Source: Candidatus Pacearchaeota archaeon
Lineage (GTDB): Archaea; Nanobdellota; Nanobdellia; Pacearchaeales; GW2011-AR1
Direction of reading: 5' to 3'
Assembly: GCA_017608405.1 (NCBI GenBank)
Contig: JAFCFX010000002.1
Location: 1 to 43,533, forward strand
DNA length: 43,533 bases
Shown: positions 13,410 to 20,314 of the stretch, one piece after another
Layout: each line of letters opens with the position of its first letter
Position numbering within the stretch: the stretch's first letter is position 1
Position numbers and translations under genes: made by a program
Notes under the pieces: generated by a model
What the model was told of the DNA's origin: nothing
The model's database searches: none
Seen by the model: the letters and a program-made list of their open reading frames with translations, nothing else

Positions 13410-14615
13410 ATGCAAGATATTCGCTTTGAAGTAATAAAGAAAATAGCACAAACTAGATTTAAGTATAAAAATATTGGAAAAATATCTAAATTAAATAGTA
13501 GTTCGCCTCCTAGTGTTTTTATTGGGAGTAAGTTAAAATATCCTTTAGTAAATGTTGGGATTTTATCTCCATTAGAGCGAGATGAAGATGCTTGGGTTTA
13601 TGATGATGCTAGATATTGGGCAAAAGAAGATTTTAGTATTCATGATGTTGTTAGGCTGAGAGACAACCTTTTGAATTCAAGGTTTCAGAGTAAGGTTCAG
13701 GATTCTAGGTTGAATAAAAAGTTTGTGCAAATTGCTCAAGAAGTTGCATTAGCAAGTAAGCCAGTAGATGTTGAGATTGAACTTAAAAATAAAGTTAGTT
13801 TAGGAAGAAAAAAAGATAGGGTTATTACTCAGATGGGTATGAGGGCAGGATTAAAAAAGGCTAGAATCACAGAGAATGTTAAAATAGATAGAAAGGTAGA
13901 TAAAGTTATTAATGATGAAGTAAAATCCTCTGAAGGATTAGAGTATCTTTATAAAAATAAATTTTCAGAATATGTTCTTTCTAAGATTTTGAGTGTAGGA
14001 GTTCTAGGATTAAAGAAGAATAAAAGATTAGTTCCTACTAGATGGAGCATCACTGCTACTGATGATACTATTGGAAAACAACTCTTGAAAAAAGTTAGAG
14101 ATTATAAATGGCTTGAAGATTTTGAATTCTTTTTTGGAGAGTTTATGGGAAATCAGTATATGTTGATATTTTTTCCAGGAGTTTGGAATTATGAATTATT
14201 TGAACTATATTTTCCTGGTTCTAGTTGGAATCCGACTCAAGAATTAAAAGCTTCCACTGATTTTGAATTGTATTCTGGAAGAAAGACATATGCTTTTGCA
14301 ACAGCAGGGGGATATTATGCAACGCGCCTTCCTATTTTAGAATATTTAAATAATATTAGGAGACAAGCTAGTGTTTTAGTAATAAGATTGGAGACTGTTA
14401 CTTATTGGGCAGCACTAGGGGTTTGGGTTGTGAGAGAGTCTGTTAGAAAAGCTCTTGCGAGAGGGAAAATAAAATTTGATAGTAAAGAAGAATTATTAAA
14501 TGGTGCTAAGAAGATTGCCAAAATCAAGTATGATTTTGATGTAGGTCAAGTTTTAAAAAAGAGTAAATTACTAGAGCAGGTTAATACTCAGAAGAGGTTG
14601 GTGGAGTGGTTTTAA
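13410..14615 (+). CDS. Archaeal DNA repair protein Nre (NreA/NreB family)
   Basis: Internal Nre-like segments ('STDFELYSGRKTYAFATAGGYYATRLPILEYL', 'ATDDTIGKQLLKKVRDY'), C-terminal PIP box QKRLVEWF. Confidence 0.85.
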   Translation: MQDIRFEVIKKIAQTRFKYKNIGKISKLNSSSPPSVFIGSKLKYPLVNVGILSPLERDEDAWVYDDARYWAKEDFSIHDVVRLRDNLLNSRFQSKVQDSRLNKKFVQIAQEVALASKPVDVEIELKNKVSLGRKKDRVITQMGMRAGLKKARITENVKIDRKVDKVINDEVKSSEGLEYLYKNKFSEYVLSKILSVGVLGLKKNKRLVPTRWSITATDDTIGKQLLKKVRDYKWLEDFEFFFGEFMGNQYMLIFFPGVWNYELFELYFPGSSWNPTQELKASTDFELYSGRKTYAFATAGGYYATRLPILEYLNNIRRQASVLVIRLETVTYWAALGVWVVRESVRKALARGKIKFDSKEELLNGAKKIAKIKYDFDVGQVLKKSKLLEQVNTQKRLVEWF

Positions 14616-14655
14616 TAATTTTGGTTTATCTTTGGCATTTGAAAGCTGATGAAAT

Positions 14656-14977
14656 GCCTAAAATAGTAGATTATCAAATAGGGCAACCAAAACCAAAAGT
14701 CCTCAAACCAGAAGAAATTCTTTTACCCTCAGATATAAAGAAGATGATTCAAGCTTGTTCTAATTCTAGAGATAAAGTTCTAATCTCCATTATGTTTGAA
14801 AGTGCTTGTAGGGTAAGCGAGATAGTTAACCTAAAAATTAAAAATATTTTAGTAGATGGGTATTGGATTAAAGTATCAGTAAAAGGAAAAACAGGAGAGC
14901 GAAATATAAGGTTAATAGATAGTGTTGGTTACATTCAAAATTGGATAAATGAGCACCCAGACAGAAAAAACAAATAA
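14656..14977 (+). pseudogene. Truncated tyrosine recombinase (XerC/D-like), only the N-lobe of the catalytic domain
   Basis: 'LPSDIKKMIQACSNSRDKVLISIMFESACRVSEIVNLKIKNI' includes the RxSEI catalytic-Arg motif; terminates at 'NEHPDRKNK' before any HxLRH or catalytic Tyr. Confidence 0.75.
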
Positions 14978-15982: not shown

Positions 15983-16783
15983 ATGGAAAAAAAGGGGCAA
16001 GTTACTATTTTTATTATAATTGCAATTTTGATTATTTCAGCTATACTTCTTTTATTTTTTTTAGAAGGAGATGCTTTAAAGAGTTATTTTGGTGGAAAAT
16101 CTAGTGAAATTTCAGCTTTATCCAGGGAGGCTAATATTGTTAAAACTCATGTTGATAATTGCTTAGAAATATCTTTAGAAGAAACTATTTTTATTAATAG
16201 TTTACAGGGGGGATATTACAGGGTTCCTAAAGATTTAAAAGTCTTTTTTCAAAATTCCAATTTATTTTGGGATATTCCTTATTATTGGATAGATGAAGAA
16301 ACTTTGATTCTTTCTCAAAGCACACTAGAAAATCAAATATCATTGGGGGTCATAAATGAAATGAAAGGTTGTTTAAATTTTTCTAGATTTTCTTTTGATA
16401 CTAGGTATTCTTTAGAAAGAATGGAAGTGGAGACTTTAATTAAAGAAGAAGAAATTTATCTAAATGTTTTTTTTCCTGTTTCAGTTAAGGTGGGGGATTC
16501 TGTATCTTTGTTAGAAGAATTTGAAATTAGGGTTGACAGTAATTATCTCTCTTTTTATAACCTTGCTGTTGATCTCATTAGTGAACAAAAACAACACATA
16601 GATTCCCTTTGTATTTCTTGTTTGGGAGATCTTTCCCATATCTATGACATAGAAATAAGTACAACAGAAGTTTTTGATGATTTTGATTATATAATCATTT
16701 ATTACCTTAAAAAAGAAATTTCCAAAGAAAAATCATTTGAATTATACTCGTTTGCACATAAATTTAAATTAGAGGAGTTGTAA
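15983..16783 (+). CDS. Secreted/pilin-like protein with class III (type IV pilin-like) signal sequence
   Basis: 'MEKKGQVTIFIIIAILIISAILLLFFL' K-G-Q + hydrophobic N-terminus typical of archaeal pilin-like preproteins. Confidence 0.65.
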   Translation: MEKKGQVTIFIIIAILIISAILLLFFLEGDALKSYFGGKSSEISALSREANIVKTHVDNCLEISLEETIFINSLQGGYYRVPKDLKVFFQNSNLFWDIPYYWIDEETLILSQSTLENQISLGVINEMKGCLNFSRFSFDTRYSLERMEVETLIKEEEIYLNVFFPVSVKVGDSVSLLEEFEIRVDSNYLSFYNLAVDLISEQKQHIDSLCISCLGDLSHIYDIEISTTEVFDDFDYIIIYYLKKEISKEKSFELYSFAHKFKLEEL

Positions 16784-19167
16784 TGGAGAGATCAATAATA
16801 TTTGTTGTGGTGTTTGTTTTATTAATTGGTTTTATTAGTGCTAGCCCTTTTGCTACTATTGGTATGCAAGGATTAAGTATGGCTAGTTCTGAAGCTGCGG
16901 AAGCTATAAGTTTAATTATTTGTGCATCAAATCCTATTGTTTGTTTAGAGGGAAAAATTATTGGAGCAGTCCAAGGAGAAGCTATGGGGTTGTTAGCAGA
17001 TGCAAATCCAGAAGCCTATAATGCTGTTGTTACATATAATCAAATCCAAGGTTATGTAGATTTGGGTTCAGAAATTACAGAGGAATTGCAGATTAATGAA
17101 GAAGGTCAAATACAAGAAGGAACAATACAATTTTCTAATGAAGAAGAAAGTGAGATAGGGAACTTAGTTGGAGAAGATTTTGATCAGGATGATATCTCTG
17201 TTAAAGGTATTGAATTTACTAAAGAAGGAAATAATAGTATTTTTGTATTTACAGAAGATGAAAGCAGTATAAATATTAAAGGACACAAGTTTGAAAATAT
17301 CCAAGCCCAATCAGAATCAAAACACCCAACATATGTGGAAATAAATAACAAAGGAAAAATTTTGGGGGCAGATTTTACTACAAATGATAAGGGAGATTTT
17401 TATACTATTAACAATGATAAAATATATGTTCCCCCAAATTCAAGATTATTTTTTAATGGTGAAAAAACGGAGATACTGGTAAAAGAGGGGGGTCAATTAG
17501 AAAAATTCCCAGAATTAATAGACTCTGATTTACAAGGAAATATAATAGAGATAACCGGAAAAAACATTAAGTTACCTGAAGAGTATGTTGTATTGAATGA
17601 AGGTAAAATAACCTATTTTGATGGAAAACCTTTTATTAAAGAAGGGGATACTGTTTTAATTAATGATTTTGTTATGAAAGCGACTGATGAAGATGTTGAA
17701 TTGAGGTTTGGTGGAAGGAGTTTATTTTCATGGGGAGAAGAAAAAGGAAATTTTGTTAGAATAAAAAGAGACGAGGTAATCTTTAATGGAAAGGGTGTTT
17801 TTGAATTTAATCCTGGAAATTATGTTGAAAGATATGACAAATTTAGTAATGGGTATTTGAGATTAATGGAACTGCCAGAATCTAACAGGCCCATACAACT
17901 AGGCGATAGGGGAAAAAAGATTAAACTAATCCAAAGACTTGTTGGAGTAAAAGAAGATGGGGTTTTTGGAGAAAGCACGGAAAGAGCACTTAAAATATGG
18001 CAAGAGGAAAATGCAATACGTATTGATGGGAAGTTTGGGCAGAACTCCCTAGAAAAAGCTTTAACTTCTGATTCTACTAGAAATATAAAATTAATCCCTA
18101 AAAACGGGAAAATATTGGTTGTAAGGAAGGAAGGTAAATTAAACATAGATTTCAATGGAGATTCTATTTTTGGAATTGGATCTAAAACATTTGAAATAAA
18201 CAAAGGAACTAAAAATGAATATTTAAAGGACCTATCTTTATCAAGAGCAAATAATGAGAGATATTTCCAAAGAGGTGATAAAGGAGAAGATGTTAAGTTA
18301 ATTCAAAAGTTGGTTGGTGTAGAAGAAGATGGAATCTTTGGAAGAGATACTGAAAGGGCAGTTAAGGAATGGCAAAAAGAAAATAAAATAATGGTGGATG
18401 GGAGGTTTGGTCAACAATCCTATGCTACTTCTTTTAGAGGAGAGGCAGTTTATAAAAAAATTAAGAAAGGAATACTCAATAATTTAGAAGTTCCAGTAGA
18501 GTTAACTTTAAGAGATGGGAAGGGGGAAAAAATAAGTGTTTTATTAGAAGATCTTAATGGTCGTTTTTCCTATAAAGGATCTAAAAAAAATATTGTTGAA
18601 AGTTTTGTTACTAAAACTGTTTTGTCTTTTGTAGATTCATCACTTAATACTTTAGGATTTAAACAAGAATCTCCTTTTGCATCTGATTTTTTTACCCATT
18701 ATTTGGCAGGGAGAGGAGATTCTTTGAAAGTTGATATTCCAGGTGAATGGAAAGACTGGATAATTAGTGAGGTAGGAGACAAAACAGGGACTTTTAGATT
18801 AAATCCTTATGACTCAGAAATTTTTGATTTAAAAAATTCCTTGGGATATTTTGATGTGGAAGTACTTGAGAATGAAGATGGTTCTAAAATTTTTAAATTA
18901 CATGATAAATATGAATTTGCATTTGCAAAGAATGATCTTTCTGAAAAAGGAAGACATGGTTTTTCAGTAGGAGAATTAGATGAAGAAACAATAAAAAAAT
19001 TAAACGAAAAGTTTTTACCTAAAAGAACATTTGCAAACCCTGGTGGGTTTGAAGAAAGATTTGAAATTAAAACTATTGGGGATAAAACCTATTTCTTTAT
19101 TCCCCAAGAATGGTTAGATGAAAATGGTTATCCTTATACAATAGAAGGAGAATTTAAAATAGTATAG
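16783..19167 (+). CDS. Large predicted secreted protein with two peptidoglycan-binding (PG_binding_1-like) domains and a C-terminal domain of uncertain function
   Basis: Signal peptide 'MERSIIFVVVFVLLIGFISASP'; PGBD1 'QLGDRGKKIKLIQRLVGVKEDGVFGESTERALKIWQEENAIRIDGKFGQNSLEKAL' (~17893-18063); PGBD2 'QRGDKGEDVKLIQKLVGVEEDGIFGRDTERAVKEWQKENKIMVDGRFGQQSYATSF' (~18262-18435); start overlaps upstream stop (TAATG). Confidence 0.85.
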   Translation: MERSIIFVVVFVLLIGFISASPFATIGMQGLSMASSEAAEAISLIICASNPIVCLEGKIIGAVQGEAMGLLADANPEAYNAVVTYNQIQGYVDLGSEITEELQINEEGQIQEGTIQFSNEEESEIGNLVGEDFDQDDISVKGIEFTKEGNNSIFVFTEDESSINIKGHKFENIQAQSESKHPTYVEINNKGKILGADFTTNDKGDFYTINNDKIYVPPNSRLFFNGEKTEILVKEGGQLEKFPELIDSDLQGNIIEITGKNIKLPEEYVVLNEGKITYFDGKPFIKEGDTVLINDFVMKATDEDVELRFGGRSLFSWGEEKGNFVRIKRDEVIFNGKGVFEFNPGNYVERYDKFSNGYLRLMELPESNRPIQLGDRGKKIKLIQRLVGVKEDGVFGESTERALKIWQEENAIRIDGKFGQNSLEKALTSDSTRNIKLIPKNGKILVVRKEGKLNIDFNGDSIFGIGSKTFEINKGTKNEYLKDLSLSRANNERYFQRGDKGEDVKLIQKLVGVEEDGIFGRDTERAVKEWQKENKIMVDGRFGQQSYATSFRGEAVYKKIKKGILNNLEVPVELTLRDGKGEKISVLLEDLNGRFSYKGSKKNIVESFVTKTVLSFVDSSLNTLGFKQESPFASDFFTHYLAGRGDSLKVDIPGEWKDWIISEVGDKTGTFRLNPYDSEIFDLKNSLGYFDVEVLENEDGSKIFKLHDKYEFAFAKNDLSEKGRHGFSVGELDEETIKKLNEKFLPKRTFANPGGFEERFEIKTIGDKTYFFIPQEWLDENGYPYTIEGEFKIV

Positions 19168-19168
19168 G

Positions 19169-20314
19169 TTAGTACCAATTAGTCAAATTATCAAAATTAA
19201 AATATATGGATTTAGTTAGCAAATCATTAGAAATTCTTTTTAAATTTTTATTATCAAATAATTCTATGGCTGTTTCTACTATGCCTTGCGTGTTCTTCAA
19301 TTGATTATAAGTCGTTAAATCGCCAACAGCTTTGGCTGCTCCAACCCCAAAAGCTGTAGCGGCTGTTCCAACTCCCATGTAAATTGGGCCGGAATCAATA
19401 TTAGCAGACTTAGCAACTTCTTCTGGAAATTCTCTAAAACCAGCAAAAAAAACAAGATCTTTTTTAAAATATTTTTTGTAATTTTCCCAAAGTTCTTTTG
19501 ATTCATCTAGAGCAAAATTAGACATATATCTTACACTCCAAGAAATAGCACATCCTCTTGGAATTTTTCCGTAATCAATTCCTGCAACTTCTGAAAATGG
19601 AAGCCCTGTTTTTTCATCTGTTGCTTTATTTTGCATATATGTAAGCCATTCTTTAATGGGCCTCTCTGATAAATTTTTATCAAAATTTTTATCAAAAACA
19701 TATAAGGAATAAAGAGTTACTGTTTGATCTGCTGGCCACCTATATTTAAGATGATTATAGGATCTAACATGTTTATGTTCATCTTCTATGGTCTTTTTTG
19801 TTAGGTGTTTTGAGATTTTCTCGTTAAGTTCTTGGTATTTGTTATCCCCCTTTACTCTTTGATAAGCTCCAAGGATAACATTTAAATGACTGAGATATAT
19901 TCCGTTATTCTCTAAATCTCCAATATCTAAAATTTCTTCTTTATAAGGAGAAATTTTATCATCTAAAGTTATATTAACAACTCTTTCTAATAGAGATCCT
20001 ACTTCTTTTCTTCTGTTAGGGTTTTTTATTGAAAATCCCACAAGGCCTTCTGCCATATTAGATAAAGCATAAATTCCCATTTCTGATGTTTGTATATTGA
20101 TTTTGTTAAATCCTTCAAAAGGGGCTAATAGAAATTCTTTAATAGATTTATATTCCTCTGTATCTTGTACTTCTTTTACAACATTTTCCAACTTTAATCC
20201 TTTTTGTGAAATCTTTTGTTCTTGGATTAGAATCTTCTCTGGTCTATTAATTTGAGGATTTCCTAATAACAAAGCAGCTAATAATGATATTGTAAAAACT
20301 TTCTTTCTTACCAT
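19169..20314 (-). CDS. Predicted secreted alpha/alpha-barrel-like protein (possibly linalool dehydratase/isomerase-like fold)
   Basis: Signal-like N-terminus; 'KIPRGCAISWSVRYMSNF', 'GFREFPEEV', 'DSGPIYMGVGTAATAFGVGAAKAVGD' resemble motifs of LDI-like alpha/alpha barrels; family recalled from motif only. Confidence 0.4.
   Translation of the reverse strand: MVRKKVFTISLLAALLLGNPQINRPEKILIQEQKISQKGLKLENVVKEVQDTEEYKSIKEFLLAPFEGFNKINIQTSEMGIYALSNMAEGLVGFSIKNPNRRKEVGSLLERVVNITLDDKISPYKEEILDIGDLENNGIYLSHLNVILGAYQRVKGDNKYQELNEKISKHLTKKTIEDEHKHVRSYNHLKYRWPADQTVTLYSLYVFDKNFDKNLSERPIKEWLTYMQNKATDEKTGLPFSEVAGIDYGKIPRGCAISWSVRYMSNFALDESKELWENYKKYFKKDLVFFAGFREFPEEVAKSANIDSGPIYMGVGTAATAFGVGAAKAVGDLTTYNQLKNTQGIVETAIELFDNKNLKRISNDLLTKSIYFNFDNLTNWY

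What the first reader, a model, noticed from the sequence alone, without database searches (positions are those of the whole stretch)
16783..19167. Secreted archaeal protein with tandem peptidoglycan-binding domains
Seen: a signal-peptide-like N-terminus and two well-formed PG_binding_1-type repeats ('LGDRGKKIKLIQRLVGVKEDGVFGESTERALKIWQEENAIRIDGKFGQNSLEKAL' and 'RGDKGEDVKLIQKLVGVEEDGIFGRDTERAVKEWQKENKIMVDGRFGQQS'), in a genome that is unmistakably archaeal (aRF1, TFS, RpoL, Cdc48, FEN1). Known: most archaea lack murein, and PG_binding_1 domains typically target cell-wall hydrolases to bacterial peptidoglycan. Inference: the protein either acts on bacterial cell walls (predation/competition or a bacterial host/partner) or the domain has been repurposed to another surface polymer.
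Basis: partly seen in the sequence, partly recalled or inferred. Interest (0 to 1): 0.8.

Follow-up and report, generated by a model that had tools for sequence, protein, structure and literature searches.

The report
Modular archaeal protein targeting bacterial walls
A tiny archaeon with no detectable genes for making a bacterial-type wall encodes an apparently exported protein with two bacterial-wall-binding modules, one member of a mix-and-match family often found beside wall-cutting enzymes, which suggests these archaea act on the walls of neighbouring bacteria.

Summary
ORF 16783-19167(+) (794 aa) has a hydrophobic, signal-like N-terminus and two PG_binding_1 domains (PF01471, E 7.6e-15); the model matches solved PGB folds. 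The genome shows no Mur ligase. Chimerism is unlikely: an independent genome carries the same architecture and operon. In 40 of 49 members the gene directly upstream is a ~250 aa 'GQVTIF' membrane protein; in the window the two genes overlap (TAATG). Convergent neighbours are often murein-type enzymes (amidase_3, NlpC/P60, YkuD), and the window's own genome encodes an MltB-type lytic transglycosylase. Best explanation: an exported effector that docks on bacterial murein through its PGB domains and presents an orphan C-terminal domain (aa ~614-794) of unknown activity; a colicin M-like reading was tested and not met. Bacterial-wall action by Pacearchaeota was already proposed (PMC8204110, PMC12352652); the scaffold family, its partner gene and the domain swapping were not found described. 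There is no biochemistry.

The parts
15983..16783 (+). Partner gene c1: 266 aa membrane-anchored protein with GQVTIF-type N-terminus (class III signal/pilin-like by inference), translationally coupled to the next gene
   Evidence: Stop overlaps the start of the next gene (TAATG, SD-like GAGGAG before it). Homologue directly upstream in 40 of 49 family members versus 8 of 292 other genes. No Pfam family.
16783..19167 (+). The finding: 794 aa exported modular protein
16783..16845 (+). Signal-peptide-like hydrophobic N-terminus (aa 1-21)
   Evidence: sequence read directly; modelled as a helix aa 2-18; no signal predictor run
16960..17817 (+). Conserved beta-rich scaffold (aa ~60-345) shared by the whole family
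   Evidence: pLDDT mostly 87-98; profile A2 finds it in 43 of 206 genomes of the order and 32 of 377 of the phylum
17884..18063 (+). PG_binding_1 domain 1 (aa ~368-427)
   Evidence: PF01471 26.6 bits on its own; pLDDT ~82-95 in the core
18070..18252 (+). Beta-rich spacer between the PGB domains (aa ~430-490), conserved in L092
   Evidence: alignment with L092; model strands aa 435-472
18259..18438 (+). PG_binding_1 domain 2 (aa ~493-552)
   Evidence: PF01471 34.9 bits on its own; 53% identical to domain 1
18622..19164 (+). Orphan C-terminal domain (aa ~614-794), presumed effector head
   Evidence: Unrelated to the YkuD head at the same place in L092; no credible homologue; model unreliable
19169..20314 (-). 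Convergent 381 aa gene with signal-like N-terminus, linalool dehydratase-isomerase-like; takes the place where other members have murein-type enzymes
   Evidence: PDB 6t9h E 8.8e-5; absent from 110 relatives

Best explanation
The gene encodes an exported, modular effector of a DPANN (Pacearchaeota) archaeon that acts on bacterial peptidoglycan. Shown by computation: two PGB domains; a conserved N-terminal scaffold family with swapped C-termini; a coupled upstream GQVTIF partner gene; no Mur ligase detected in the genome; an MltB-type lytic transglycosylase in the same genome. Inferred: the protein leaves the cell together with, or displayed by, its GQVTIF partner; the two PGB domains dock it on the sacculus of a neighbouring bacterium; and the orphan C-terminal domain, the swappable part of the family, does the work there. 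The purpose is either attack (scavenging, predation, competition) or firm attachment to a bacterial host; I lean to attack because the swapped heads and neighbouring genes are mostly hydrolase-like.
For: PF01471 twice, by profile and fold. Closest relative L092: 37% identity over 616 alignment columns through scaffold, both PGBs and linker (E 6e-115), then a YkuD L,D-transpeptidase (E 6e-16), a murein-specific chemistry. Family C-termini: SLT-like plus PGB in L075, invariant HExxH, NlpC/P60-like D-C...H. Convergent neighbours: amidase_3 E 9e-27, NlpC/P60 E 2e-6, YkuD E 2e-16 and 3e-20. Own genome: SLT_2/MltB E 4.8e-29, PDB 5o8x E 8e-17, no Mur ligase. Upstream partner in 40 of 49 members. Independent prior inference for the lineage in PMC8204110; archaeal peptidoglycan hydrolases reported to kill bacteria in PMC12352652.
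Against: No recognised catalytic domain in the window protein itself. PGB domains are found in only 10 of 206 genomes of the order, so most family members do not bind murein this way, and many heads (metallopeptidase-like) could act on proteins. Several head assignments rest on motifs only; PDB profile searches gave nothing significant. The genome is ~76% complete, so absence of Mur ligase is not proof. The window's convergent neighbour is LDI-like, not a murein enzyme. Export, binding and activity are untested.
Confidence: 0.62

Rival explanations
1. Attachment rather than attack: the protein is a surface adhesin that anchors the archaeon to the murein of a bacterial host, and the C-terminal domain is structural or a second binding domain.
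For: The window protein has two binding domains and no recognised catalytic domain; large beta-rich scaffold; coupled membrane-anchored partner. PMC8204110 suggests bacterial episymbiosis.
Against: C-termini of relatives at the same position include enzyme families (YkuD, SLT-like, HExxH), so this position usually carries enzyme-like heads.
Confidence: 0.22
2. The PGB domains have been repurposed to bind the archaeon's own or its archaeal host's surface glycan, or pseudomurein.
For: PGB-type domains elsewhere are not all proven murein binders; many DPANN have archaeal hosts (general knowledge).
Against: L092 fuses the same PGB pair to YkuD, whose chemistry needs D-amino-acid peptides not found in pseudomurein (general knowledge); murein-type neighbours and an MltB-type enzyme in the own genome.
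Confidence: 0.13
3. The C-terminal domain is a colicin M-like lipid II phosphodiesterase.
For: A DKYEF stretch resembles the DKYDF of colicin M; 2025 survey lists colicin M homologues in some archaea.
Against: Motif DxYD(x5)HR (PMC8469651) not met: E for the second D and no HR at the required spacing. No Colicin_M profile match, though the whole-genome search had no positive control. No fold match, but the model is too poor to count.
Confidence: 0.04
4. Bacterial contamination or a chimeric contig.
For: PF01471 is bacterial by origin; one genome of the same order (G040) does carry a VanY-like plus PGB protein on a 56% GC stretch that looks foreign.
Against: Archaeal genes on both sides and matching GC/GC3; scaffold homologues in many DPANN genomes; the same two-gene order in independent genomes.
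Confidence: 0.01

Closest known systems
Large extracellular murein transglycosylase-like proteins of Pacearchaeota and Woesearchaeota (fam00969, PMC8204110)
   Same: Same lineages, extracellular, proposed to bind and degrade bacterial walls.
   Different: Described by a transglycosylase domain and lengths up to 3,000 aa; the window protein has two PGB domains, no transglycosylase domain and a different orphan head. Whether fam00969 overlaps this scaffold family could not be checked (supplementary tables not available).
Modular archaeal peptidoglycan hydrolases, e.g. Woldo and Danwoldo of Halogranum salarium (PMC12352652)
   Same: Exported archaeal proteins with tandem PG_binding_1 domains; that study finds such proteins prominent in Nanoarchaeota.
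   Different: Those pair tandem PGBs with M23 or glucosaminidase; here the PGBs sit after a lineage-specific scaffold, with a beta-rich spacer between them and no recognised catalytic domain, so a survey that requires a known catalytic domain would miss it.
Bacterial polymorphic toxins
   Same: Conserved N-terminal delivery part, swapped C-terminal heads, head-type-specific neighbouring genes.
   Different: No known toxin head, no demonstrated immunity gene, no known secretion marker domain.
SleB N-terminal and phage endolysin PGB modules (6tci, 3bkh)
   Same: PGB fold and DGxFG motifs.
   Different: Shorter first loop; not fused to the SleB or gp144 enzyme.

Membership tests
PG_binding_1 (PF01471) | Profile score above curated cut-off | tested here: met
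   55.3 bits versus 23; each repeat separately over the cut-off
PG_binding_1 (PF01471) | PGB three-helix fold | tested here: met
   6tci TMt 0.71, 2.1 A; 3bkh 2.2 A
PG_binding_1 (PF01471) | Binds peptidoglycan | not testable with these tools
   needs pull-down with sacculi
[quoted passage not shown]
   two PF01471
Modular archaeal peptidoglycan hydrolase (as in PMC12352652) | At least one recognised murein-cleaving catalytic domain | tested here: not met
   none by Pfam, NCBIfam, PHROGs or PDB search in the window protein
Polymorphic secreted toxin system | Conserved N-terminal part with exchanged C-terminal domains | tested here: met
   window versus L092: 37% identity then unrelated heads; family table
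Polymorphic secreted toxin system | Dedicated immunity gene | tested here: inconclusive
   head-type-specific neighbours exist (clusters c2, c5, c7), but c5 and c7 are enzymes and none is shown to protect; the window's neighbour is LDI-like
Polymorphic secreted toxin system | Toxicity to a target cell | not testable with these tools
   needs expression assays
Colicin M | DxYD(x5)HR motif | tested here: not met
   window has DKYE and no HR at x5 (motif from PMC8469651)
Colicin M | ColM catalytic fold | tested here: inconclusive
   no match, but C-terminal model pLDDT 43

The most novel reading that the evidence does not exclude
DPANN archaea possess their own polymorphic secreted effector system: a lineage-specific scaffold, delivered with or on a dedicated GQVTIF pilin-like partner, carrying interchangeable wall-binding and enzymatic heads against bacteria; the window protein carries a new type of wall-targeted effector domain.
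Probability: 0.3. Interest if true: 0.85.

Novelty: new variant of a known kind. Interest (0 to 1): 0.62.

Why it matters
Whether Pacearchaeota and other DPANN live on, or off, bacteria is open. A compact two-gene module with murein-binding domains, swappable heads and murein-enzyme neighbours gives concrete proteins to express and a marker gene pair to look for in host-association studies. It also shows that surveys which require a known catalytic domain miss such proteins, and offers an uncharacterised candidate effector domain.

Tried and rejected
Colicin M-like identity of the C-terminus: motif not met, no profile match, model too poor to use. Weak phylum-wide hits of the C-terminus (E 0.004-0.05): of the eight ORFs read, L035 is the G450 locus (match in the linker) and the other seven are unrelated cytoplasmic-type proteins, so chance; L042 was not read. 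C-terminus against phages and plasmids: nothing. Viral-contig scans of the C-terminus gave no answer from the machine; alignment A2 was not conserved enough for such scans. Genome contigs with the window protein found no relative; with a five-row scaffold alignment it gave six loci. PDB profile searches for the metallopeptidase-like and lysozyme-like heads gave nothing significant, so those labels rest on motifs only. DNA-level repeats of 40 bases or more in the gene: none, so the PGB duplication is old. Promoter and terminator scans: no more than chance.

Full report
Observation. Pfam recognises two PG_binding_1 domains (PF01471, 55.3 bits, E 7.6e-15), each above the curated cut-off on its own, and they are the only ones in the genome. 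They are 53% identical. AlphaFold2 with 33 family sequences models PGB1 and PGB2 well (pLDDT ~82-95 and ~79-89). Foldseek matches the PGB module to SleB N-terminal domain 6tci (2.1 A) and phiKZ gp144 3bkh (2.2 A) at probability 1.00. The N-terminus is a hydrophobic signal-like stretch, judged by eye.

Context. The window is a whole contig (C21) of a 535 kb, ~76% complete genome. Neighbours are ordinary archaeal genes, and the gene's GC and GC3 are those of the contig. The six relatives found in the named collection are MAGs, five labelled Candidatus Pacearchaeota and one just 'archaeon'. No Mur ligase is found, whereas the same search rings in all 14 control genomes, including archaea with Mur-ligase-like proteins. 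The same genome encodes a ~258 aa protein with a signal-like N-terminus of the MltB lytic transglycosylase family (SLT_2 E 4.8e-29; PDB 5o8x E 8e-17), flanked by archaeal-type genes.

Family. A protein search finds homologues in 25 of 187 genomes searched, the own genome included. A profile of the ~220 aa core finds it in 43 of 206 genomes of the order and 32 of 377 of the phylum. The shared part is aa ~60-345, mostly modelled at pLDDT 87-98 as a beta-rich structure, with no Pfam family above cut-off and no confident PDB match. The C-termini differ. By Pfam: YkuD in L092 (E 6e-16), SLT just under its cut-off in L075 together with a PGB, DUF4846 in L074. By conserved motifs only: HExxH metallopeptidase-like with a later invariant E-D (A6), NlpC/P60-like with invariant D-C and H (A7), caspase-like H...C (A9), lysozyme-like (A8; no PDB match). 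Other members with a PGB: L092 (two), L075 (one good, one very weak) and L090 (weak).

Domain swap. The closest architecture is L092 (genome G450): 37% identical over 616 columns, E 6e-115, covering scaffold, both PGBs and the linker. After that L092 has YkuD and the window has an unrelated domain (best E 1.4). This C-terminal domain (aa ~614-794) has no credible homologue in anything searched, and its single-sequence model is too poor to interpret (pLDDT 43).

Operon. Directly upstream in the window lies a 266 aa GQVTIF-type gene whose stop overlaps the start of the finding gene (TAATG). A profile of this gene finds a homologue directly upstream on the same strand in 40 of 49 family members versus 8 of 292 other genes in the same loci (p 3e-35). 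The members are related, so the p-value overstates independence, but they include loci from other families of the class (L150, L152, L153). Distant paralogues in the own genome precede other large exported proteins, so the pairing may be part of a wider DPANN surface or export theme. That the partner is pilin-like is inference from its N-terminus.

Neighbours. Several members have a convergent gene with a signal-like N-terminus that is a murein-type enzyme: amidase_3 (L075, E 9e-27), NlpC/P60 (L086 over cut-off, its homologues beside L107 and L097), YkuD (L085 and L092, E 2e-16 and 3e-20). Three others have a NAGPA phosphodiester glycosidase. In L092, YkuD is both the head of the protein and its neighbour. 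In the window the convergent gene is linalool dehydratase-isomerase-like (PDB 6t9h, E 9e-5) and unique among the relatives searched.

Interpretation. The most economical reading is an exported effector family whose PGB-bearing members act on bacterial murein; the window member docks by two PGBs and acts through an orphan head. Shown: domains, swap, gene pairing, no Mur ligase detected, presence of a lytic transglycosylase. Inferred: export route, binding, effect and target. A colicin M-like head was considered because of a DKYE stretch; the defining motif DxYD(x5)HR (PMC8469651) is not met and nothing else supports it.

Prior art. PMC8204110 (2021) reported large extracellular murein transglycosylase-like proteins in Pacearchaeota and Woesearchaeota and suggested bacterial hosts. 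PMC12352652 (2025) found modular peptidoglycan hydrolases in nearly 5% of archaeal genomes, prominent in Nanoarchaeota, and reports that those of Halogranum kill bacteria; it required a catalytic domain, which the window protein lacks. PMC9723730 (2022) made similar inferences for Woesearchaeota. I found no paper in the held library describing this scaffold family or its GQVTIF pairing; subscription papers and supplementary tables were not searched.

Verdict. Observation confirmed; interpretation partly supported and extended. New variant of a known kind; interest 0.62.

Noticed in passing
L158:3796-4572 (-), own genome contig C23: MltB-type lytic transglycosylase with signal-like N-terminus, flanked by HisRS-like and other archaeal-type genes. 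A murein hydrolase in an archaeon with no Mur ligase detected.
   Followed up: partly
window 19169-20314 (-): Convergent 381 aa protein with signal-like N-terminus, related to linalool dehydratase-isomerase (PDB 6t9h, E 9e-5), absent from 110 relatives. An isoprenoid-type enzyme fold exported by an archaeon is odd.
   Followed up: partly
L122:3638-9000 and L124:3718-6004, own genome contigs C19 and C6: Distant GQVTIF paralogues directly precede other large exported-type proteins (1,178 aa; Cys-rich 512 aa), suggesting a general pairing of GQVTIF proteins with exported proteins in this lineage.
   Followed up: no
L085:1621-2190 (-) and L091:5378-5938 (+): Two scaffold-family members end in a caspase-like domain by eye (HRxHS ... 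CGS), 41% identical to each other; no Pfam family.
   Followed up: no
L077:1886-2824, L088:1557-2513, L099:693-1643 (+): A NAGPA phosphodiester glycosidase gene (PF09992) always sits convergent to the same lysozyme-like head type, a head-specific pairing.
   Followed up: no
L073:4962-5558, L080:3247-3849, L087:5612-6172 and others (cluster c2): About 200 aa protein with signal-like N-terminus and C-terminal membrane anchor, downstream of metallopeptidase-type members in nine loci and apparently fused in L151; candidate inhibitor or immunity protein.
   Followed up: no
L026 / L125 (G040:C53): VanY-like plus PGB protein on a 56% GC stretch in a Pacearchaeota bin; probably bacterial contamination.
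   Followed up: partly
window 14606-14977 (+): Short tyrosine-integrase-like ORF (PF00589, 123 aa, covering only the start of the profile), a possible mobile-element remnant ~1 kb before the operon.
   Followed up: no
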